DNA of 64,000 bases from an uncultured Holophagaceae bacterium (GTDB taxonomy: Bacteria > Acidobacteriota > Holophagae > Holophagales > Holophagaceae), in the NCBI GenBank assembly GCA_903937385.1, contig CAIZZF010000010.1, forward strand, positions 124,001 through 188,000, read 5' to 3'. The notes below the pieces were generated by a model that saw only the letters and a program-made list of their open reading frames with translations, searched no databases and was not told the DNA's origin. Every line of letters starts with the position of its first letter. Within the stretch, counting starts at the first letter, position 1. Shown here in pieces: positions 52,153 to 62,845 of the stretch. The position numbers were made by a program, and so were the translations under genes.

Positions 52153-52223
<71 letters not shown>

Positions 52224-52229
<6 letters not shown>

Positions 52230-52511
52230 ACCACGAAGAGGCCCGCCAACACTAGGTTTGCGGGCCTTTTCCCTTATTGCCCAGACGGCGTGGAAGGTGT
52301 CGGAAAATGCTACCGAATGCGACGTGATGATGACGTCGTATAGCAGGCGAAAGTGCCCAAAATTGAAACGGTTCAATTCGGTGTAGAACCGCTCCATGCC
52401 TGCGTTTAGGTGGCTATGCCTTACCTGGTTGGCGTAGCGGCGAAGTGCCCAGAACGATGGCTTCACCACACCAGAATCCTGCCTCTCACGATTCCCTGAT
52501 GGCCGGTTCAC
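52224..52511 (-). CDS. Hypothetical protein (95 aa), last gene of a coupled cassette
   Basis: GTG 52511 overlaps the upstream stop by GTGA. The product has a basic N-terminus (N-R-P-S-G-N-R-E-R-Q) and a central segment of aromatic and Asn residues (M-E-R-F-Y-T-E-L-N-R-F-N-F-G-H-F-R). The stop codon lies inside the 3' end of tRNA-fMet on the opposite strand, so its last codons are the island junction. No family recognised; the C-terminus may have been created by integration. Confidence 0.45.
52240..52270 (+). terminator. Rho-independent terminator after tRNA-fMet
   Basis: Stem GGCCCGC/GCGGGCC with a loop of about 13 nt, then TTTT. It lies inside a small antisense gene, so that gene's last third must read through the complement. 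Confidence 0.75.
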
Positions 52512-52828
52512 AGGGGACTCCTCGTTGAGGTCATCGGGGTTTCTGCGAGAGCTTGGTCTTCCCCCACACGCCGTCTCTCGCGCCACCTGTCCGCCATCAC
52601 AGCAGCGGCCACGACGGGCCATCCGAACTGCGCCCAGGCGAACACAGTGAGGAAACCGTGGGCGGAGGCGAAGAACCGTGTCCTGCGTTCAGATTCGAAG
52701 GCGCTGAGCCCCAGGGCTTCCCGTCGCCACGTATGCCGATCTGGGCTGTAGATCCGGGACATTGACCTGGCCGCCATGATGCCGCCGACGACAAGGTAGG
52801 CCCCGATGAAGATGGCGATTGTGCTCAC
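52508..52828 (-). CDS. Hypothetical membrane protein (106 aa)
   Basis: GTG 52828 overlaps the upstream stop by GTGA. An N-terminal membrane helix (I-A-I-F-I-G-A-Y-L-V-V-G-G-I-M-A-A) is followed by a basic stretch with R-R-E-A-L-G, then a second hydrophobic segment (A-W-A-Q-F-G-W-P-V-V-A-A-A-V-M) and a charged tail. Family unknown. Part of the four-gene cassette beside tRNA-fMet. Confidence 0.6.
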   Translation of the reverse strand: MSTIAIFIGAYLVVGGIMAARSMSRIYSPDRHTWRREALGLSAFESERRTRFFASAHGFLTVFAWAQFGWPVVAAAVMADRWRERRRVGEDQALAETPMTSTRSPL

Positions 52829-53178
52829 CACGTGGGATTCGCAGGGCCGTGGCCGTCTTCGCTGACAACCGGCTCCAGCACCCCCTCCGGCCACCCCAGG
52901 GCGGTTGCTCGCTGCGCCCAGGCGTGTGCTGCGACAGGATCAGCTATCACCCCAACCCCAACCCTGTAGCTGAACCACATTGATACTCCCGCCACCGGCA
53001 GCCCGGCCTTCGCGGACTCCAGGAAGAGCCTGATGGACCCCTGAGTGTCCCCGCGACCCTCAGCCGCCCTGCCTTCCATGAAGGCATCCCAGGGGCCGTG
53101 GACGTCGCGGCAGGAGTGCCTTGGCTGATAGAGCAACTTGATGAGCTTTGCCAAGGAGGCAGTGACCGATGAGATCAT
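52825..53178 (-). CDS. Sel1-like repeat protein (small)
   Basis: ATG 53178 overlaps the upstream stop by ATGA, which fixes the start; the frame upstream is open but would overlap the previous gene. The 117-residue product contains Sel1/TPR-type helical pairs: M-E-G-R-A-A-E-G-R-G-D-T-Q-G-S-I-R-L-F-L-E-S-A and Y-R-V-G-V-G-V-I-A-D-P-V-A-A-H-A-W-A-Q-R-A. Such repeats mediate protein contacts. The role in this cassette is unknown. Confidence 0.65.
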   Translation of the reverse strand: MISSVTASLAKLIKLLYQPRHSCRDVHGPWDAFMEGRAAEGRGDTQGSIRLFLESAKAGLPVAGVSMWFSYRVGVGVIADPVAAHAWAQRATALGWPEGVLEPVVSEDGHGPANPTW

Positions 53179-53399
53179 CCAGGCTCTCCGGTCACCTTCT
53201 CCTGCATGGCTGTGGCCGTGGGATCGAAACACATGATCCCGATCCGGCCCGGATGTTGAGCCCAGAGGCGAGCAGCCTCCTCCCAGGTAGCGTGGACCAT
53301 GTGCGGCCTCCTACCCGCAACGGAGACCTTCAGGCGGCCCTCGCTGTCGATTACGGGGTGATTGCCATCAATGAGGCGGTGAAGTTCGTCTACGTCCAT
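53175..53399 (-). CDS. Hypothetical protein (74 aa), first gene of the cassette
   Basis: ATG 53399 with GGAG about 11 bp upstream. The product is compact: M-D-V-D-E-L-H-R-L-I-D-G, a basic middle (V-S-V-A-G-R-R-P-H-M), then W-E-E-A-A-R-L-W-A-Q-H-P-G-R. No family recognised. The three genes after it overlap by ATGA or GTGA. Its promoter must lie in the gap 53400-53581, which holds no other gene. Confidence 0.55.
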   Translation of the reverse strand: MDVDELHRLIDGNHPVIDSEGRLKVSVAGRRPHMVHATWEEAARLWAQHPGRIGIMCFDPTATAMQEKVTGEPG

Positions 53400-53581
53400 G
53401 GTGATAGAGGCTCCAAGCGATCTTCTGTATTACACGTCAGCTTGTGTAGGCCCTATGTGGAAGTTCTGGCGACATGATTCAAGGAGCGCAGCACCAGGAG
53501 ACCGGTGATGACTGCATTCACATCGGTAAGGCCACCGGCCCCCTGGTGCTCAATGGATCGGGATCACATCGGCCTGACGGC

Positions 53582-54103
53582 CTAGGGGGCGAAGGTCCTG
53601 GCCTCTACCTTCTTCTGACCCTGGTCCCCAGTCGGAGCCGCCACCCGTGGAGAAGAACTCGGCAGGAGTGTTACCTCGCCAACACCGGTCGATAGAATCG
53701 AGAGGGCCATCAGTCTGAACATGGCCAACTGGGCGTCCGCAGCAACGCGGGTTGTAACACCTTCGAGGTCTCCGAGCACCACTTGAACAAGGGGTATCGG
53801 GGAATTGAAGAGATGCCCCTTGTCATAGGAAATCAGGGCTTTCCCAGCATGGACAGAGAGATGGATAGCCCATCCATAAGCCGCGTCGCTGCATCGCCAG
53901 GTAGCAAAGACCATCGGCAGGCCGAGAGGTTGAATACGGGGGTTCCAGGGGTCGTCAAAGGCCTCTCGCACTTGTTCCGCCAACGCTGGGGCCAGTGAAG
54001 GGGTTGATTGCATGGTGTGGTTGAGCAGCCGAGCGATCGTCGCTACGGCCTCTACAGCGACATGCATCCGATCTTGCATCCTGGTCTGAACGAAGTCGCT
54101 CAT
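53582..54103 (-). CDS. Hypothetical protein (173 aa)
   Basis: ATG 54103 lies one base after the stop of the HTH gene, so the two are a unit. The product is mixed helical and beta (M-H-V-A-V-E-A-V-A-T-I-A-R-L-L-N-H, L-V-Q-V-V-L-G-D-L-E-G) with a disordered basic tail. No family recognised, and no signal peptide. Its partner is an excisionase-like DNA-binding protein. Confidence 0.6.
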   Translation of the reverse strand: MSDFVQTRMQDRMHVAVEAVATIARLLNHTMQSTPSLAPALAEQVREAFDDPWNPRIQPLGLPMVFATWRCSDAAYGWAIHLSVHAGKALISYDKGHLFNSPIPLVQVVLGDLEGVTTRVAADAQLAMFRLMALSILSTGVGEVTLLPSSSPRVAAPTGDQGQKKVEARTFAP

Positions 54104-54104
54104 C

Positions 54105-54356
54105 TTATAGCTCCTCGATCTTTTCGGTCTCAGGCTCGGGCTTCGGCGAGTTCAACCAGATGTCGCGGAGATAGTCGTTGATGGCCTCAGAAGGGTAGAG
54201 GACCAACCCCCTGGGTGAAACGCGGATATGAGCTGGGGCCGCTCCCTCCTTGCGGAGCTTGGCCAGTGCCCTCGTGCTGATGCCGAGATACTTGGCACAT
54301 GTCTTCTCTGGAACCCAGAAGTCAAAAATGTAGTCTTCCTCAGGGCTGTTCTGCAT
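54105..54356 (-). CDS. Excisionase/AlpA-like helix-turn-helix protein
   Basis: ATG 54356 has GGAG close upstream. The 83-residue product contains F-W-V-P-E-K-T-C-A-K-Y-L-G-I-S-T-R-A-L-A-K-L-R-K-E-G, a winged-helix/MerR-type HTH as in Xis/AlpA proteins, followed by a wing (I-R-V-S-P-R-G-L-V-L-Y) and a helix with Y-P-S-E-A-I-N-D-Y-L. It would bind island DNA to direct excision or control transcription. The DNA just upstream carries phased repeats that are a plausible binding site. Confidence 0.8.
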   Translation of the reverse strand: MQNSPEEDYIFDFWVPEKTCAKYLGISTRALAKLRKEGAAPAHIRVSPRGLVLYPSEAINDYLRDIWLNSPKPEPETEKIEEL

Positions 54357-54867
54357 GGCTCCTCCGATCGTTGAGGGCGGGGATGTGGGCCGCCTCACGA
54401 TCGGATCTGAAAGTTCGGTTTTAACTTTACTGACCCTGGGCAACCCAATGTCAGCCAGGTGCAGCCAAGGGCACCCCAGCGCAGCCAACTGCGTAGGTGC
54501 GAAGTCAGACAATTGTTTTTTAGAATGTCTCCCCTGGGATTGCTAGCTATCCCAGCCACAGCAGGACCAGAGTGCCTTCCTGCTGTGCGACGCCCCTGCC
54601 TTGACTTGAAGGTCAGAGCGCCACCTGTGGGCATAAGTCTTTGGTCAGTGCCTGTCGCCTTGAGTGATGTATGAAGGGATCATGAAGCCCGCCACCCATG
54701 CTGGCCGGTGCCCTGGTGGTCAAGGAAACCTACCCTGACGGAACCAACCCTGGCCTCAATCACTCTGCTGGAGGGCGGGGATGGCCTGCTAAAATGAACG
54801 AAATTATCGACATACCTGCCCTGTCCCATGGCTCCCAGACACGGAATTAATTGAAAGAGTGCTCTTC
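54357..54867. promoter_or_regulatory. Intergenic control region with phased CAGCCA-type repeats
   Basis: No gene is supported between the HTH gene and hsdM, which diverge. At 54443-54489 five similar units (CAACCCA, CAGCCA, CAGCCA, CACCCCA, CAGCCA) start at about 10-bp steps (54443, 54454, 54464, 54473, 54484), so they lie on one face of the helix. The rest (54500-54840) shows no clear structure. Confidence 0.6.
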
Positions 54868-57132
54868 ATGAAGAACCTCGACACCTTCAAGCAACAGGGC
54901 GACGTCATCTGGGATATCGCCAACCTCCTCCGTGGCCCCTACCGGCCACCGCAATACCGACGGGTGATGATCCCCCTGGTCGTCCTACGCCGCCTGGATT
55001 GTGTGTTGGAAGCCAGCAAGGCTGCTGTCATCACCATGCACAAAAAGCTCAAGGCCGATGGCAAATCGGACGCGGACGCCATCGAGAAGACCATCAACCA
55101 CAAGTTCGGCCTCACCTTCCACAACACCAGCGACTTCACCTTCGACAAGCTCCTGGGCGACCCGGACAAGTTGGCCAGCAACCTGATCAACTACATGGCT
55201 GGGTTCTCCTCCCGTGCCCGGAAGATCATTGAAAAGTTCAAGTTCGAGGAGGAGATCGAGAAACTGGAAGAAGCCAACCGGCTCTTCGAGGTCATCAAGC
55301 GGGTCGCCGCCATCGACCTGCACCCGGATGCGATCCCGAACATCGGCATGGGCTACCTCTTCGAGGATCTGGTCAGGCGCTTCAATGAGCAGGCCAACGA
55401 GGAGGCCGGGGACCACTTCACCCCCCGCGAAGTGATCGGGCTGATGGTCAACCTCCTCTTCACCCATGACGACCTGGTCTACAAGCCAGGCAAGGTCATC
55501 AAAATCTACGATCCCACCTGTGGCACCGGCGGGATGCTGTCGGAGTCCGAGAAGCTCATCAAAGATCCCGAGACAGGCCTGAACCCCACCGCCACCCTTG
55601 GGCTCTTCGGCCAGGAATACAACCCCGAGTCCTTCGCCATCTGCGGGTCCGATCTCATGATCAAGGGCGAGGACGTGAAGAACATCGCCTTCGGGGACAC
55701 CCTGGGCACCGGCAAGACCAAGGACGGCTACGTTGACGGCGATGGTCACCCGGATGAGCAGTTCCACTACATGCTTGCCAACCCTCCCTTCGGGGTCGAG
55801 TGGAAGCCCGAGAAGGATCACGTCACCAAGGAGCACAACGAGTTCGGCTTCAACGGGCGGTTCGGTCCCGGCCTGCCCCGCATCAACGACGGGGCGCTCC
55901 TGTTCCTGTTGCACATGATCTCCAAGATGCGCTCCGCCACCGACGACGAGGGCTCGCGCATTGCCATCGTCTTCAATGGCTCGCCGCTCTTCACCGGCGA
56001 CGCGGGCAGCGGTGAGAGCAACATCCGCCGCTGGATCATCGAGAACGACATGCTGGAGGCCGTCGTTGGGCTCCCCGACCAACTCTTCTACAACACCGGC
56101 ATCTCCACCTACGTGTGGATCGTCACCAACCGCAAACCATCCAACCGCGCCGGGAAGGTCCAGCTCATCAACGGCACCGACTTCGCCTGGAAGATGAAGA
56201 AGAGCCTGGGGGATAAGCGCAAGAAAATCGGCGACGGCGCTGAGGGCTCCCCCAATCACATCGAGGTTCTGACCAAGCTCTACGGTGACTTCCAGGACGG
56301 TGTCCGCATGACCGTGGGGGAGATCCAGACCAACATCGACCCCAAGCGGGACCAGGCCAAGAGCCTCCCAGTCAGCAGGATCTTCGACAATCAGGAGTTC
56401 GGGTTTCTCAAGATCACCGTTGAGCGCCCCCTGCGTCTCAACTTCGCGGTGACCGACGAGCGGATCGACCGCTTCAAGGCGAGCACGTCTTTCATGGCCC
56501 TGGCCATCTCCCGGAAGCGGAAGAACAAGCAGAAGATGGAGGAGGAAGTCCTCGCAGGGGAGGCTGCCCAGGCCGCCATCCTGGAGGTGCTGGATGGGTT
56601 GAAGCCCCGGTTCAACGCCGGGCAGGTGACCAAGAACCGGGAAACCTTCCAGAAGCTGTTGGCCGAGGCATTCAAGAAGGCGGACATCACCATGGACGGG
56701 CCACTCAAGAATGCCCTCCTGGCCTGCGGCAGCCTCGGCGAGAAGGACCCCTCAGCCGACCCTTGCACCGATGCCAAGGGCAAGCCCGAACCCGATGCGG
56801 ACCTGCGGGACACCGAGAACGTGCCCTTGCCTTCCGGCATCGCGCTGCCGTTACCCATCGACTACGAGGGCAAGAAGAACAAGGGGAAGGTAGACGCCAC
56901 CGCCTTGTTGGACTTGGTGCAGGACCACTGCGAAGCCTACCTCAAGGCCGAAGTTTTGCCCTATCGCCCGGATGCCTGGATTGACCACAGCAAGATCAGG
57001 GTCGGCTACGAGATCCCCTTCAATCGGCACTTCTACCAGTATGAGCCCCCACGTCCCCTGGCCAAGATCGAGACCGACATCAAGGACCTGGAGAGGGAGA
57101 TCATGACCATGCTGGAAGCGGTGACCCTGTGA
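54868..57132 (+). CDS. hsdM: Type I restriction-modification DNA methyltransferase subunit HsdM
   Basis: A 754-residue adenine-N6 methyltransferase. The SAM motif is D-P-T-C-G-T-G-G near residue 215 and the catalytic motif N-P-P-F near 305, after an N-terminal helical HsdM_N domain. Longer than many (about 500 aa) because of a C-terminal extension with a basic region. It needs an HsdS subunit for DNA recognition. Start is ATG 54868, with GTG 54859 also possible; the next gene overlaps its stop by GTGA. Confidence 0.94.
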   Translation: MKNLDTFKQQGDVIWDIANLLRGPYRPPQYRRVMIPLVVLRRLDCVLEASKAAVITMHKKLKADGKSDADAIEKTINHKFGLTFHNTSDFTFDKLLGDPDKLASNLINYMAGFSSRARKIIEKFKFEEEIEKLEEANRLFEVIKRVAAIDLHPDAIPNIGMGYLFEDLVRRFNEQANEEAGDHFTPREVIGLMVNLLFTHDDLVYKPGKVIKIYDPTCGTGGMLSESEKLIKDPETGLNPTATLGLFGQEYNPESFAICGSDLMIKGEDVKNIAFGDTLGTGKTKDGYVDGDGHPDEQFHYMLANPPFGVEWKPEKDHVTKEHNEFGFNGRFGPGLPRINDGALLFLLHMISKMRSATDDEGSRIAIVFNGSPLFTGDAGSGESNIRRWIIENDMLEAVVGLPDQLFYNTGISTYVWIVTNRKPSNRAGKVQLINGTDFAWKMKKSLGDKRKKIGDGAEGSPNHIEVLTKLYGDFQDGVRMTVGEIQTNIDPKRDQAKSLPVSRIFDNQEFGFLKITVERPLRLNFAVTDERIDRFKASTSFMALAISRKRKNKQKMEEEVLAGEAAQAAILEVLDGLKPRFNAGQVTKNRETFQKLLAEAFKKADITMDGPLKNALLACGSLGEKDPSADPCTDAKGKPEPDADLRDTENVPLPSGIALPLPIDYEGKKNKGKVDATALLDLVQDHCEAYLKAEVLPYRPDAWIDHSKIRVGYEIPFNRHFYQYEPPRPLAKIETDIKDLEREIMTMLEAVTL

Positions 57133-58127
57133 GCGCCGAGGTCATCCTCTACCGGACGGACGATGGCAAGGCCCTGGTGCAGCTTCGGGCCATGGGGGGG
57201 AGCGTGTGGCTCTCCCAGTCGGAAATCGGTGAACTCTTTGCCACAACCAAGCAGAACGTCAGTCTTCACATCCGCAACATATTCAAAGAAGGCGAGTTGA
57301 CAGCCGATTCAGTGGTCAAGGAATCCTTGACAACTGCCGCTGATGGCAAGAACTACCGCACCCAGTTGTATCGCCTAGAGATGATCCTGGCGGTGGGCTA
57401 CCGGGTGAAGGGTCTACGTGGCACCCAGTTCCGTCAGTGGGCCACCGGTCATCTGGCTGAATACCTCATCAAGGGTTTCGTCATGGACGACGAGCGCCTC
57501 AAGAACCCAGGCGGCTGGGACTACTTCGATGAACTCCTGGCCCGCATTCGGGAGATCCGGGCCTCCGAAAAACGCTTCTATCAGAAGGTCCGCGACCTTT
57601 TCGCCCTCAGTGCCGACTATCAGGCCGACGACCGGAACGCCCAGCTCTTCTTCGCCGAGGTGCAGAACAAGCTCCTGTTCGCCGTGGCCCAGAAGACGGC
57701 TGCCGAGATCGTGGTATCCCGGGCCGACCCCGCCTCTCCCAACATGGCCCTCACCACCTGGAGCGCCACCCGGGTGCGTAAGAGCGACGTCATCATCGCC
57801 AAGAACTACCTGAGTGCCGATGAGGTTGACACCCTGAACCGCCTCGTTGTGATCTTCCTGGAGCAGGCCGAACTCAGGGTCAAGGAGCGCCAGCCCCTCA
57901 CCCTCGACTACTGGCGGCAGAACGTGGACCGCCTGCTGGCGTTCAATGACCGCCCCGTGCTGAGCCACGCCGGGAGCATCAGCAACGACGACATGAAGCT
58001 CATCGCCTACGACCGCTACGAGACCTTCGACCAAAACCGCCGGGGGACGGAAGCCCTTGCCGCCGACGAGGAGGACCTGAAGACCCTCGAAGCCGTCGAG
58101 AAGCAGGCCAAGCGAGGCAGGAAGTGA
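57129..58127 (+). CDS. RhuM-family protein
   Basis: A 332-residue member of the RhuM (virulence_RhuM) family: L-S-Q-S-E-I-G-E-L-F-A-T-T-K-Q-N-V-S-L-H near 30 is a predicted HTH, then Y-R-L-E-M-I-L-A-V-G-Y-R-V-K, Y-L-I-K-G-F-V-M-D-D-E-R-L-K, and a helical C-terminus. RhuM was named from Salmonella but its role is unsettled; relatives occur often inside type I restriction operons. GTG 57129 overlaps the hsdM stop and its own stop overlaps the hsdS remnant, so it is a true operon member. Confidence 0.88.
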   Translation: MSAEVILYRTDDGKALVQLRAMGGSVWLSQSEIGELFATTKQNVSLHIRNIFKEGELTADSVVKESLTTAADGKNYRTQLYRLEMILAVGYRVKGLRGTQFRQWATGHLAEYLIKGFVMDDERLKNPGGWDYFDELLARIREIRASEKRFYQKVRDLFALSADYQADDRNAQLFFAEVQNKLLFAVAQKTAAEIVVSRADPASPNMALTTWSATRVRKSDVIIAKNYLSADEVDTLNRLVVIFLEQAELRVKERQPLTLDYWRQNVDRLLAFNDRPVLSHAGSISNDDMKLIAYDRYETFDQNRRGTEALAADEEDLKTLEAVEKQAKRGRK

Positions 58128-58383
58128 CCTACCGGGCCTACCCTGACTATTGCCCCAGCGGTTCCAATGCGCTCGGCGAGCTTCCTACTACCTGGAAGGC
58201 CAGGCGACTTCGTTTCCTTGTTCATGGGATCGACCAAGGCTGGAGCCCCCGGGCAAGCAACGTGCCTGCCGAGGGGGACGAGTTGGGCGTCCTGAAGCTC
58301 AGCGCCGTGAGCGGCGGCCACTTCGATGCCAGCGAGAACAAGCAACTAGAGGAGATCCCAGAGGGCCAGGTTGTCCTGTCACC
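58124..58383 (+). pseudogene. hsdS: Truncated hsdS (N-terminal remnant)
   Basis: GTG 58124 overlaps the RhuM stop by GTGA, the normal start of an hsdS gene. About 85 residues match the HsdS N-terminus: L-G-E-L-P-T-T-W-K-A-R-R-L-R near the start, and a sequence ending E-I-P-E-G-Q-V-V-L-S, inside the first target-recognition domain. Near 58378-58384 the sequence changes abruptly to hsdR in a different frame. The second half of hsdS is missing, so no functional specificity subunit is made here. Confidence 0.8.
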
Positions 58384-59388
58384 CAGCCCCTGCTGCACAC
58401 CATGTATGTGGACAAGAAGCTCACGGGTCTCCAGGCAGTGCAGACCCTCTCCCGGCTGAACCGGACCACGGTGGGCAAGGAGGACACTTTCATCCTCGAC
58501 TTCCGCAACAAGCCCGAGGAGATATTCAAGGCGTTCAAGCCCTACTACGAGGACACGCCCACGGACCCCCTGACCGACCCGCAGCATCTCTATCGGCTCC
58601 AGCATCAGATCGAAGAGACCAAGCTGATCTTCGAGGAGGAGGTCAAGGCATTCGCCGCTGTCTACTTCAAGCCAACCCGCAAGGAGACCGTCCAGGACAA
58701 CGCCCAGATGAATGGCATCCTGGACCAGGCCGTGGACCGGTTCAAGGAGCGCCCCGAGGACGAGCGCGAGGACGCCAAGGCCCTCCTGGTGAACTTCCGC
58801 AACATGTATGGCTTCCTGTCACAGGTGATCCCCTATCAGGACTCGGACCTGGAGCAGCTCTACACCTACCTGCGGTTCCTGCTCACCAAGTTACCCAAGC
58901 GGGAGACTGGGCCGGGCTACCACCTGGAAGACGAGGTCGAGCTTCAGTATTACCGGCTGCAAAAGATCAGCGAGGGGCAGATCGACCTGACCTCCGGTGA
59001 GGGCAAGCCCTTGAAAGGTCCCAGCGACGTGGGCACCGGCCAGGAAGACTACAAGATCGCCCTGTCCGAACTCATCGACATCCTCAACGAGCGATTCGGC
59101 ACGGACTTCACCCAGGCCGACCAGCTCTTCTTCGATCAGATCCAGGAGGAGGCCATCGAGAGCGACACCCTCCAGAAGGCGGCGGCGGCCAATTCCAAGG
59201 AGGACTTCCGCTACGTCTTCGAGAAGGCGTTCGAGGGCTTGGTCATCGACCGCATGGAAGGCAACGAGGAAATCTTCACCCGGCTCATGGGCGACGGCGA
59301 ATTCAGGAAGCTGGCCCTGGAGCACCTGCTGCATAAAGTCTATGGAGCCTTGAAGCCCCCCAAGGACTTGGCCGTCACCGGGGCCTGA
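58384..59388 (+). pseudogene. hsdR: Truncated hsdR (C-terminal remnant)
   Basis: About 335 residues in a frame other than that of the hsdS remnant match the end of HsdR: Q-P-L-L-H-T-M-Y-V-D-K-K-L, then A-V-Q-T-L-S-R-L-N-R-T (end of the motor domain), and a helical C-terminus with E-A-I-E-S-D-T-L-Q-K and A-F-E-G-L-V-I-D-R-M. The nuclease domain and most of the helicase motor, expected upstream (full length about 1000 aa), are absent. It could only be translated from an internal ATG such as 58402. Confidence 0.85.
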
Positions 59389-59768
59389 TCGCTTTCACTA
59401 GAGACGCCAGGTGCCGCCAGGTAGGTCGGGTTCGCCATCACCCACCAACGGGTTCACCGACACGAGCCACACCAGGCCCCTGCGTTCTGGAGGAGGGTGG
59501 GAGGGTGATAGCAACATCTGTCCTGGTTCACCTAGACCCCAACGCAGTCGCCAGATCAGGGGCAGGTGGTCGGGGCAACCCTTGAACGAACAGGTCGAGA
59601 TGAGAATCATGCGTAGACTCGCGTCAACAGTGGATCCAGGTGCCTACATTTTGAAAACTGGATCAACACTTACGTGTAGACAGGGGCTTCAAAGGCACTT
59701 TCAGACCGCAGGTATATTTTGCAAGTATTGATTTCTGGCTAGTTGCACGTTTTTCCACGTATATTACA

Positions 59769-59792
59769 AGATATAGAAGATGGTAATGCTGC
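59769..59792 (+). repeat. Direct repeat, left copy
   Basis: 24 bp that match 61447-61470 with one mismatch (GATG-G-TAATGCTGC here, GATG-T-TAATGCTGC there). The copies are 1678 bp apart in the same orientation and enclose the end of the non-coding region, the start of the next gene and its RuvC-like domain. Confidence 0.85.
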
Positions 59793-59850
59793 CCTGTGTA
59801 ATCTGTTTTCACTTATAGATGGGTTCAGGGGTGTGGGGGCAAGGGAAGAA

Positions 59851-59990
59851 AGCGGGGCTTTGCCCCTGCACCCCAGGTTCGGCTTCGCCTCACCCTGCAA
59901 CCAAAGCAGCGGGGCTTTGCCCCTGCACCCCAGCTCGGCTTCGCCTCGCCCCTGCCCCCAATAGCGAAGGCTCCGCCTCCCTGCACCCAA
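59851..59990. repeat. Small palindromic repeats (GGGGCTTTGCCCC type)
   Basis: An exact 26-bp unit occurs at 59851-59876 and 59908-59933, 57 bp apart. Each has a GGGGC-TTT-GCCCC hairpin and is followed by TCGGCTTCGCCTC. A partial third unit (GGCTCCGCCTCCCTGCACCC) ends near 59990. Together they form a row of short hairpins. Confidence 0.75.
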
Positions 59991-60478
59991 CAGAACCGTG
60001 GTCGTCGCGACCATGTCCATCCTGTCCCCTGATAGGTATGCCCTCCCTGTTGCACAGGAGATGAGCTGACTGGTCCCCACCAATGGCCTGTTGATGCCGG
60101 AGGGTTCGATGACACCTTGTCTGTCAGCCCTGCCCCCTCCGTCCGCTCCTGGCGCTTCCCTGGGAAGCCAACCCCTCGTTACTGAACGCCAGCAGAAGGG
60201 GGAGGTTCACAGAGGCGATGTCGAATCGTCCCCATTCATGATGCGGAGTCTTCCTGCCTGACCGGACGCCCACGGTGCAGGCACCGCCCAGCACAACCCT
60301 TGGGAACACCCCAGCGGTCACTTCGGAATGCATTCTAGTGGATTTTTTTTGGTGGCGAACAGGAGCCCGAATTGCCCTCTACTCCTATCCTGGTTGATGT
60401 AGACGACAATTTCGTTACGCATGAAATAATTCAACTTAATCATTGACCAAGCTCGCTTGCGGCGCTAGATTTAGGGTC

Positions 60479-62845
60479 ATGTTGGCCCACTCCTCAACTT
60501 CGCGTGTAACTCACGCCCTCACGGATCCGATCCCGGATGCCAAACCTTCACTTCGTCTCTACACGCAGGCGATGAATGCCCTGGTAGGGGTTGACCGGAA
60601 TTGTGGTCATCGCAGTGTGTTCTTCGTGAAGCCCGACGACCAATGTTTTGACCGTGTCCTTGGCGATGCCCGGAAAGATCGAGTTCTCAAACTGGCCAAG
60701 GAGATCATCCCCGCCGCCATCGCCGCATACGACAAGGTCCGCAGGAAGGCCAACGGCCCCCTGCGGCCTAAGAAGCAGCGGGACTCCATGCCCCTGGTGG
60801 TCGAGTCCCAGTTGAAGTTCGCCAAGTCCTACCTGAAGTCCCAGGGCTACGTCGGTGTCCACGACATCGCCATGGCCCACAACGGAACAGCCCTGAACTT
60901 CCTCCACGAGACCCCCAGCGGGACGCCCAAGGGCACCCAGGGGGGCCGGGAGGACTGCCTAGCCATGGTGGCCACCCCTGAGGGCCTCCACCTCGTCCTG
61001 GAGAGCGGCTCGGGCCAGACCGTGGCCACGACGGTGACGCCCGCAACACTACGAGATCCGAAGTTCATCCAACGACTGGCCTACCAGATCGCCCCCAGCA
61101 TCCGGGCTCTGATGGTCTTCGTGGATCCTAAGCTCAAAGGTATTCCTGCGGAAGCTCTCCGTCAGGTCTACCGGCAAGTGAGAAGGCGTGTGGCCGAGAA
61201 TGCCATCGCTTTCAAGAGGGTTGGAGCAGTTGACCGCTCGACCCCGCTCTGCCTGTCCTGCCACCGTCTGGTTCGCCATGTCGGTGATGAATGTGCCTGT
61301 GGGGCAACCCACAGTCAGGGCATCCTCGATGCCCACTCCATTCTTGCGGCGGGCAGGGATTCAATGGGTGCAGTGGCCTACCTCTGCCAAGGTGGCCCTC
61401 ACTCCTTCGACGTCCCCACCGGGGGCGCATCGGTATCAACAACAGCAGATATAGAAGATGTTAATGCTGCGACGGAAGTCACTGGGGAGCCCTCGCGCTC
61501 TCTCAACACTGGTCTGTGCCAGGGCCGCAAGCCGCTCAATGACGCGGTGATAAATCAGGCAGGACGGGATGCTCACAGAGAAGATCAGCATCCTGCACAA
61601 GAGCCGGTAGGGCAGTGTCCGCCTAATGCAGGTGGACACTCCAGGCCGGTAGCAGAACCCTCAGACCCCACCATGCAGTCGGTGGAAACCCAGACTCGCG
61701 GCTTCGTCGGAGCCTCATCCGCATCAAACCTCGTCCCGCAGAAGACTAGTTCTGACAGCCTCGCCGGAGCTACATCCAGCCAACACCCTGGCCAGCATGA
61801 GCCTAATCATGACAGCCCCGCCGAGGCCCATATCGAGCACCCTATGCTCCAACCGTGGTGGAAACGCCTCGGGATGAAAACCCCGCCAACGGAGGAATTC
61901 CTTGTCGAGGACATGCATCAACTCGCCAAGATTCGTCTTCCGGATGAGGTCGATTATTACTTTAGGACCGAAACCCTTTTCGGACTCCCTGTGGAGTGGG
62001 GGCTGCGACGTGCCCCTGACAACTTCCACACAAGGCAGGTGTTACTAGACCATCTGGTTCAGGAGATTTACCCCCTGATCGAAGCGTATAACGACGACCT
62101 CGTCATTGGGATCATTGACGGTTCTAGTCAGCCCCCAGAGGAAGCGTTGGAATTGGTCATTTCCAATTATGCTGGCGAGCGGCCAGAAGACAGCGAACCT
62201 GTCTCCTCACTACAGACACTGGATGTCCAAGCCTGTCGAAGTGCTGAATCCAAATCTGCACACCCGAGGCTTCTGTCGTGGTGGCAGCGCCTTGGACTGG
62301 AAGCCAGACCCACCAAGTGCCTCCTGGCGGAGATGAAGCCCCTGGCCTCATTTCATGCTACCCAGGAAGCTGAAGCCTACTTCAGTTCAAGGACCATGAC
62401 ACTGCTCCCAAGGCGGTGGAAGGTGGCGGATGGTGGGTATAAAGAGACGGTGTTGGAGGGGATGACCCTGCTTCTCTACAAAGACATCCTCGCCAAGATG
62501 AGTAAATCCGGTCGGGTAGTGAAAGCAGCGGATGGCCAGGACGATGGACGGTCCACACCTTCCTCATCTGCCCCAATCCACCCAATGGCCCAGAGTTGGT
62601 GGGAGCGGCTCGGCTCCGATACGAAGCCATCAGTGATGCCGGACATCCACCAGATGAAGGTGCGAATGATGACCTGTGCCGACCGTGAAGCCAGTCATTA
62701 CATCACCAACAATCTTCTGCACCTATTGCCGGATTACTGGCTCGACGACCTCAGTTTGGATTGGAGTGAAAGTGTGTCCAGCCTCACCAAGCTGCTCGCA
62801 GGTGACCTGGAAGGACAGATCGAGGATGACGCCAAGCCAAGCTGA
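60479..62845 (+). CDS. RuvC-like (TnpB/Cas12-type) nuclease-domain protein with three C-terminal repeats
   Basis: A 788-residue protein. Its N-terminal third matches the RuvC/zinc-ribbon order of TnpB/Cas12 proteins: V-G-V-D39-R-N-C-G; a second acidic candidate, either D216 in F-V-D-P-K-L-K-G or E109 in L-V-V-E-S; a four-Cys zinc ribbon at C258, C261, C272, C274; and D284 in I-L-D-A-H-S-I-L-A-A-G. The spacing of D216, zinc ribbon and D284 fits TnpB, but the 177-residue gap after D39 is long, and no wedge or recognition region precedes D39. After a disordered linker come three repeats starting H-P-x4-W-W-x-R-L-G at 454, 595 and 701. ATG 60479 was chosen; TTG 60443 and ATG 60572 are possible. 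No guide RNA or transposon ends are identified. Function not known. Confidence 0.7.
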   Translation: MLAHSSTSRVTHALTDPIPDAKPSLRLYTQAMNALVGVDRNCGHRSVFFVKPDDQCFDRVLGDARKDRVLKLAKEIIPAAIAAYDKVRRKANGPLRPKKQRDSMPLVVESQLKFAKSYLKSQGYVGVHDIAMAHNGTALNFLHETPSGTPKGTQGGREDCLAMVATPEGLHLVLESGSGQTVATTVTPATLRDPKFIQRLAYQIAPSIRALMVFVDPKLKGIPAEALRQVYRQVRRRVAENAIAFKRVGAVDRSTPLCLSCHRLVRHVGDECACGATHSQGILDAHSILAAGRDSMGAVAYLCQGGPHSFDVPTGGASVSTTADIEDVNAATEVTGEPSRSLNTGLCQGRKPLNDAVINQAGRDAHREDQHPAQEPVGQCPPNAGGHSRPVAEPSDPTMQSVETQTRGFVGASSASNLVPQKTSSDSLAGATSSQHPGQHEPNHDSPAEAHIEHPMLQPWWKRLGMKTPPTEEFLVEDMHQLAKIRLPDEVDYYFRTETLFGLPVEWGLRRAPDNFHTRQVLLDHLVQEIYPLIEAYNDDLVIGIIDGSSQPPEEALELVISNYAGERPEDSEPVSSLQTLDVQACRSAESKSAHPRLLSWWQRLGLEARPTKCLLAEMKPLASFHATQEAEAYFSSRTMTLLPRRWKVADGGYKETVLEGMTLLLYKDILAKMSKSGRVVKAADGQDDGRSTPSSSAPIHPMAQSWWERLGSDTKPSVMPDIHQMKVRMMTCADREASHYITNNLLHLLPDYWLDDLSLDWSESVSSLTKLLAGDLEGQIEDDAKPS
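61447..61470 (+). repeat. Direct repeat, right copy
   Basis: Inside the linker of the RuvC-like gene, just after its zinc ribbon/D284 region, encoding D-I-E-D-V-N-A-A. Matches 59769-59792 at 23 of 24 bases. Confidence 0.85.

What the first reader, a model, noticed from the sequence alone, without database searches (positions are those of the whole stretch)
60479..62845. RuvC-like protein without recognition region, fused to three C-terminal repeats
The sequence shows G-V-D-x-N at residue 39, a C-x2-C/C-x-C zinc ribbon at 258-274 and a D-A-x-S-I-L-A-A motif at 284, in the order of TnpB/Cas12 RuvC domains. But nearly nothing precedes the first motif, whereas TnpB and Cas12 have a large N-terminal wedge/recognition region. 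The second acidic residue is displaced (D216 or E109), and about 500 further residues follow. This could be a new branch of RuvC-type effectors, an RNA-guided or protein-guided nuclease, or a repurposed inactive domain. It sits beside a recombinase and a decayed restriction system, as mobile or defence genes do.
Basis: partly seen in the sequence, partly recalled or inferred. Interest (0 to 1): 0.88.

Follow-up and report, generated by a model that had tools for sequence, protein, structure and literature searches.

The report
Orphan RuvC-like zinc-ribbon protein with repeats
A mobile island in a bacterial genome carries a one-of-a-kind protein that probably contains a worn-down nuclease-type fold (RNase H/RuvC-like with a zinc ribbon, as in TnpB) joined to three copies of an unknown module, but its resemblance to RNA-guided nucleases is weak and its cutting site looks broken.

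Summary
Three ~85-aa C-terminal repeats are real (16 invariant columns; 34% identity). The protein is an orphan: no hit in Pfam, PHROGs, NCBIfam, PADLOC, PDB, phages, plasmids, viral contigs, pattern scans of 84,980 species, or the related genomes searched. Only its first ~40 codons recur, in one congener, where an insertion-sequence-like repeat interrupts it. Single-sequence AlphaFold models are low-confidence, but in both, residues ~159-240 form the b-b-b-a-b-a core of an RNase H-like fold (RuvC, MOC1, integrase, IS110-recombinase matches, Z 5-6). The zinc ribbon lies between that core and the helix with D284, as in TnpB/Cas12. Similarity to diverse TnpB C-terminal halves is marginal (shuffle P about 0.0004-0.01) and was not reproduced with a narrow TnpB set. 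In this reading GVDxN at residue 39 is not RuvC-I: about 130-160 residues precede the core, and strand 1 lacks the catalytic Asp. I favour a degenerate, probably catalytically compromised TnpB-like nucleic-acid-binding domain on a mobile island. RNA guidance is unproven.

The parts
60479..62845 (+). Orphan ORF, 788 aa from ATG 60479 (alternative starts TTG 60443, ATG 60572); residue numbers in this report count from 60479
60443..60471 (+). Promoter-like TTGACC-17-TAGATT just before ATG 60479, also present in the related island of G016; consensus match only
   Evidence: sequences
60479..60949 (+). N-terminal segment, residues 1-157: two short strands around GVDRN (D39) and long helices; no known relative
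   Evidence: low-confidence secondary structure
60953..61357 (+). Putative RNase H/RuvC-like core, residues 159-293: strands 159-166, 169-175, 181-186, helix 194-203, strand 208-215 followed by D216, helix 224-240, then zinc ribbon and a helix with D284
61250..61312 (+). Zinc ribbon C258-x2-C261...C272-x-C274-G-x2-H278
   Evidence: sequence; pattern in 0.07% of shuffles
61328..61357 (+). DAHSILAAGR, candidate RuvC-III helix (D284)
   Evidence: alignment to the last TnpB helix
61358..61837 (+). Linker rich in polar residues, residues 294-453
   Evidence: translation
61838..62107 (+). C-terminal repeat 1
62261..62506 (+). C-terminal repeat 2
62579..62827 (+). C-terminal repeat 3
59769..59792 (+). 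24-nt repeat AGATATAGAAGATGGTAATGCTGC, upstream copy (also in G016)
61447..61470 (+). 24-nt repeat AGATATAGAAGATGTTAATGCTGC, copy inside the ORF just after the core
59511..60597 (+). Mostly non-coding island DNA shared with G016 at 85.5% identity; ends where G016 meets a repeated, insertion-sequence-like end at its contig edge
62905..63957 (-). Tyrosine recombinase (Phage_integrase, E 1.9e-26), convergent with the ORF

Best explanation
A mobile-island protein whose residues ~159-293 are a divergent RNase H/RuvC-like domain with a TnpB/Cas12-style zinc ribbon, preceded by a ~130-160 residue N-terminal region and followed by a linker and three ~85-aa modules. It probably descends from, or resembles, TnpB-type proteins but has lost at least the first catalytic Asp (and has D284 out of place). 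It therefore most likely binds nucleic acid rather than cuts it, and works as an accessory or regulator of the tRNA-associated island, with the C-terminal modules giving multivalent binding to DNA or a partner. Shown: the ORF, the zinc-ribbon pattern, the repeats, the island setting. Inferred: the fold, the lineage, the loss of catalysis, the binding role.
For: Both single-sequence models give b-b-b-a-b-a at residues 159-240. Structural matches are dominated by RNase H-like proteins: RuvC, MOC1, HIV integrase, Tex/Spt6, IS621 recombinase, type III pantothenate kinase, S11, and Cas12g (rank 41); phage RuvCs in the viral library. The zinc ribbon sits between the core and the D284 helix, the TnpB order. 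Against TnpB C-terminal-half profiles from diverse acidobacterial-phylum TnpBs, 0 to 0.3% of composition shuffles and 0.1-0.8% of shuffles with fixed cysteines score as high, aligned in register from helix 2 through the zinc ribbon to the last helix; an IS110 profile gives P 0.12-0.33. In strand 1 (DCLAMVAT) no D/E lies at the position expected for RuvC-I; D216 follows strand 4. Islands with shared segments sit at tRNA-Met here and tRNA-Ala in G016.
Against: Model confidence is low (pLDDT 37 and 51, pTM 0.30 and 0.45); Z 5-7 is within what unrelated models give. The whole-length TnpB profile (P 0.05-0.13) and a narrow viral TnpB profile (P 0.44-0.58) do not support kinship, and some background ORFs score as high as the query. 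Pfam's TnpB zinc-ribbon model does not find it even at E 10. No homologue is available to test conservation of any residue. The accessory/regulatory role rests on setting alone.
Confidence: 0.36

Rival explanations
1. An active RuvC-type nuclease with a rearranged active site, D39 (or another residue) + D216 + D284, guided by RNA or by its C-terminal modules.
Against: D39 lies ~120 residues before the modelled strand 1; a GVDxN-type motif is common by chance (17% of shuffles); no strong RNA structure after the core (150-nt window at 61226, z -2.2); no homologues.
Confidence: 0.12
2. An RNase H-like domain of another lineage (DDE/integrase-like or IS110/RuvC-like) in which a zinc ribbon arose independently.
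For: Structure hits to retroviral integrase, MOC1, RuvC and IS621/ISCro4 recombinases are as good as or better than those to Cas12; the spacing from strand 1 to D216 (~50) is IS110/RuvC-like rather than TnpB-like (~87; my own knowledge).
Against: IS110 profile gives no signal (P 0.12-0.33); a zinc ribbon at this point of the fold is a TnpB/Cas12 trait.
Confidence: 0.17
3. An unrelated orphan zinc-ribbon protein (not RNase H-like); the motif order is coincidence.
For: No database hit; marginal scores; low-confidence models.
Against: RNase H-like topology recovered from two separately folded lengths, with consistent library matches.
Confidence: 0.22
4. A decaying or chimeric gene, no longer functional.
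For: Neighbouring restriction genes are decayed (only fragments of hsdS and hsdR remain); the G016 copy is interrupted by a repeated element; a stretch of island DNA is repeated inside the ORF.
Against: 800 stop-free codons, gene-like codon composition, three repeats still alike as protein.
Confidence: 0.13

Closest known systems
TnpB (IS200/IS605, IS607) and Cas12 RuvC domains
   Same: Order of core, zinc ribbon, D-containing last helix ending ILAAG; ~130-160 residues before the core; mobile-element setting
   Different: No long helical insertion between strands 3 and 4; CxC instead of CxxC; first Asp missing from strand 1; ~495-residue C-terminal extension with three repeats; no curated profile hit; no TnpA or transposon ends seen
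TldR (TnpB-like nuclease-dead repressors)
   Same: A RuvC site that looks inactivated, on mobile DNA (PMC13418256)
   Different: TldRs are recognisable TnpB relatives with a guide RNA next to the gene; neither is shown here; large C-terminal extension
RuvC/MOC1 resolvases and the IS110 (IS621) recombinase DEDD domain
   Same: Structural matches of Z 5-6 over about 72-106 residues; similar spacing of acidic positions
   Different: No zinc ribbon in those families (my knowledge); no sequence similarity to IS110

Membership tests
TnpB/Cas12 | Match to a curated TnpB/Cas12 profile (Pfam, NCBIfam, PHROGs) | tested here: not met
TnpB/Cas12 | RuvC fold with zinc ribbon between RuvC-II and RuvC-III | tested here: inconclusive
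   low-confidence models match RNase H-like folds; zinc ribbon pattern present; marginal TnpB profile scores
TnpB/Cas12 | Catalytic D-E-D triad (RuvC-I, II, III) | tested here: inconclusive
   strand 1 of the model has no acidic residue at the expected place, D216 in place of E, D284 offset by three in the profile alignment; no homologues to check
TnpB/Cas12 | N-terminal wedge and recognition domains | tested here: inconclusive
   127-158 residues precede the core, but their fold is unknown
TnpB/Cas12 | Guide RNA from the 3' end of the gene or a CRISPR array | tested here: inconclusive
   no known RNA family apart from a tRNA; no strong local RNA structure just after the core
TldR | Recognisable TnpB with inactivated RuvC plus guide RNA | not testable with these tools
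   needs RNA data; the TnpB part is covered in the rows above
IS110 DEDD recombinase | Match to DEDD_Tnp_IS110 | tested here: not met

The most novel reading that the evidence does not exclude
A new branch of TnpB-like proteins, nuclease-dead and fused to a repeated binding module, that is guided by RNA to its own island: the 24-nt sequence lying ~90 nt past the RuvC-like domain in the gene (61447-61470), roughly where a TnpB guide would lie, matches a site upstream of the gene (59769-59792) at 23 of 24 positions.
Probability: 0.04. Interest if true: 0.85.

Novelty: new variant of a known kind. Interest (0 to 1): 0.42.

Why it matters
If it is a TnpB-lineage domain taken over by an integrative island together with a new repeat module, it adds a further independent exaptation of these nucleases and a test case for what RuvC-zinc-ribbon domains do without catalysis. 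The repeat family matches nothing in any library searched.

Tried and rejected
Relatives by peptide patterns in genome contigs of 84,980 species and in viral contigs, by a degenerate pattern of the repeat motif (20 stretches, all judged chance) and of the zinc ribbon (chance). Weak hits in G033/G046 overlap a different kind of gene and the G123 hit contains stops. A Streptomyces plasmid hit at E 5 was taken as chance. Rfam: a tRNA and sub-threshold noise only. A duplication of the tRNA end marking the island's far end was not found in the held sequence, but the contig ends 1.6 kb past the window. Structure-library searches list few Cas12 rows and no TnpB rows; that is not evidence against them. 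The abrupt end of similarity to G016 at 60597 was first read as a domain boundary; it is a repeated, insertion-sequence-like end at a contig edge. Caps left no metagenome scan and no further fold job, so the N-terminal segment and the repeats were not folded alone.

Full report
The ORF. All listed motifs are where stated. It is very unlikely to be a chance frame: a stop-free run of this length has probability ~2e-12 at local composition, and the other frames hold 18-32 stops. Codon-position G+C is gene-like over the core and repeats, though G+C at third positions (0.52-0.79) is lower than in the neighbouring hsdM (0.88). Three C-terminal segments are alike as protein.

Relatives. No family in Pfam, PHROGs, NCBIfam, PADLOC or PDB sequences matches. 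No relative was found in plasmids, phages, viral contigs or the pattern scans of genome contigs, nor by whole-genome search of 150 near relatives, 396 genomes of the phylum and 93 of the class. A profile of the repeats found only this gene convincingly. The one exception is a congener, G016. Its contig C55 shares 59511-60597 at 85.5% DNA identity, including the first ~40 codons (10 differences in 155 bp, six at third codon positions). There it runs into 137 bp that recur at the edge of another G016 contig, as an insertion sequence at a contig break would. The short reading frame in those 137 bp looked transposase-like to me by eye, which is untested. The rest of the ORF is not detectable in G016.

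Setting. The window's tRNA-Met at 52153 is followed by island DNA. The segment 52578-54287 is 83% identical to DNA just after a tRNA-Ala in G016, so related islands sit at different tRNAs. Cargo here is a type I methylase (54859-57132), a RhuM-family gene (57129-58127) and only fragments of hsdS (recognised by eye) and hsdR, then the orphan ORF and, convergent with it, a tyrosine recombinase.

Fold. Two single-sequence AlphaFold runs (residues 32-328 and 145-301 in the 788-aa numbering) are poor overall (mean pLDDT 37 and 51). Both give strands 159-166, 169-175, 181-186, a helix starting near 194, a strand at about 208-215 and a helix at about 224-240, which is the RNase H order. Foldseek and VIA-align matches are mostly RNase H-like proteins in the PDB, and phage RuvCs in the viral library. 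Z never exceeds 7.1, which the tool's own calibration says can be a mere common arrangement. I take this as moderate evidence for the fold. D216 falls just after strand 4, where TnpB has its Glu. The zinc ribbon (258-278) and a helix with D284 follow, as in TnpB/Cas12.

TnpB kinship. TnpB proteins were taken from related genomes. Profiles of the C-terminal half (12 and 20 sequences) score the query's N-terminal third, or the core alone, above all but 0-0.3% of shuffles and above all but 0.1-0.8% of shuffles that keep the cysteines fixed; a mixed set of 29 gives 0.1-0.5% and 0.8-1.1%. The query was the best non-TnpB frame in one background set, but in a larger background scored with the mixed set several frames reached scores as high. 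A first full-length set gave hhalign P 0.0023, another gave 0.077, and a narrow viral set gave nothing. The relation is therefore suggestive only. An IS110 profile built the same way gives no signal. Rearranged but active RuvC sites exist among TnpBs (PMC10278001), and nuclease-dead TnpBs (TldR) act as RNA-guided repressors (PMC13418256), so both an active and an inactive reading have precedent.

A 24-nt repeat. AGATATAGAAGATGNTAATGCTGC occurs at 59769 (non-coding, also in G016) and at 61447 (inside the ORF, ~90 nt after the core) and nowhere else in this genome; no match is seen in 100 shuffles. It may be a recombination remnant, a binding site or, most speculatively, a guide-target pair.

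Verdict. A real, unique gene on a mobile island, probably carrying a degenerate RNase H/RuvC-like domain with a zinc ribbon and a new repeat module. The claim of a new RNA-guided effector without a recognition region is not supported; D39 as RuvC-I is unlikely.

Noticed in passing
window 59769-59792 and 61447-61470: 24-nt direct repeat with one mismatch, one copy non-coding and conserved in G016, the other inside the ORF; only two copies in the genome.
   Followed up: partly
window 58124-59388: Type I restriction system decayed: a short hsdS-like start and an hsdR C-terminal fragment overlap, next to an intact-looking hsdM and a RhuM gene.
   Followed up: partly
window 52153-54287 and L011 13540-15973: Related islands at tRNA-Met here and tRNA-Ala in a congener share an 83% identical 1.7-kb segment next to the tRNA.
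   Followed up: partly
L078 1-1000: A third congener (G014) carries the recombinase end (96% identical) and the gene beyond it at a contig edge, so the island is probably there too.
   Followed up: partly
window 59851-59951: GC-rich duplicated units (AGCGGGGCTTTGCCCCTGCACCCCAG) in the shared non-coding region; a 36-nt piece of that region also matches G007 and G042.
   Followed up: no
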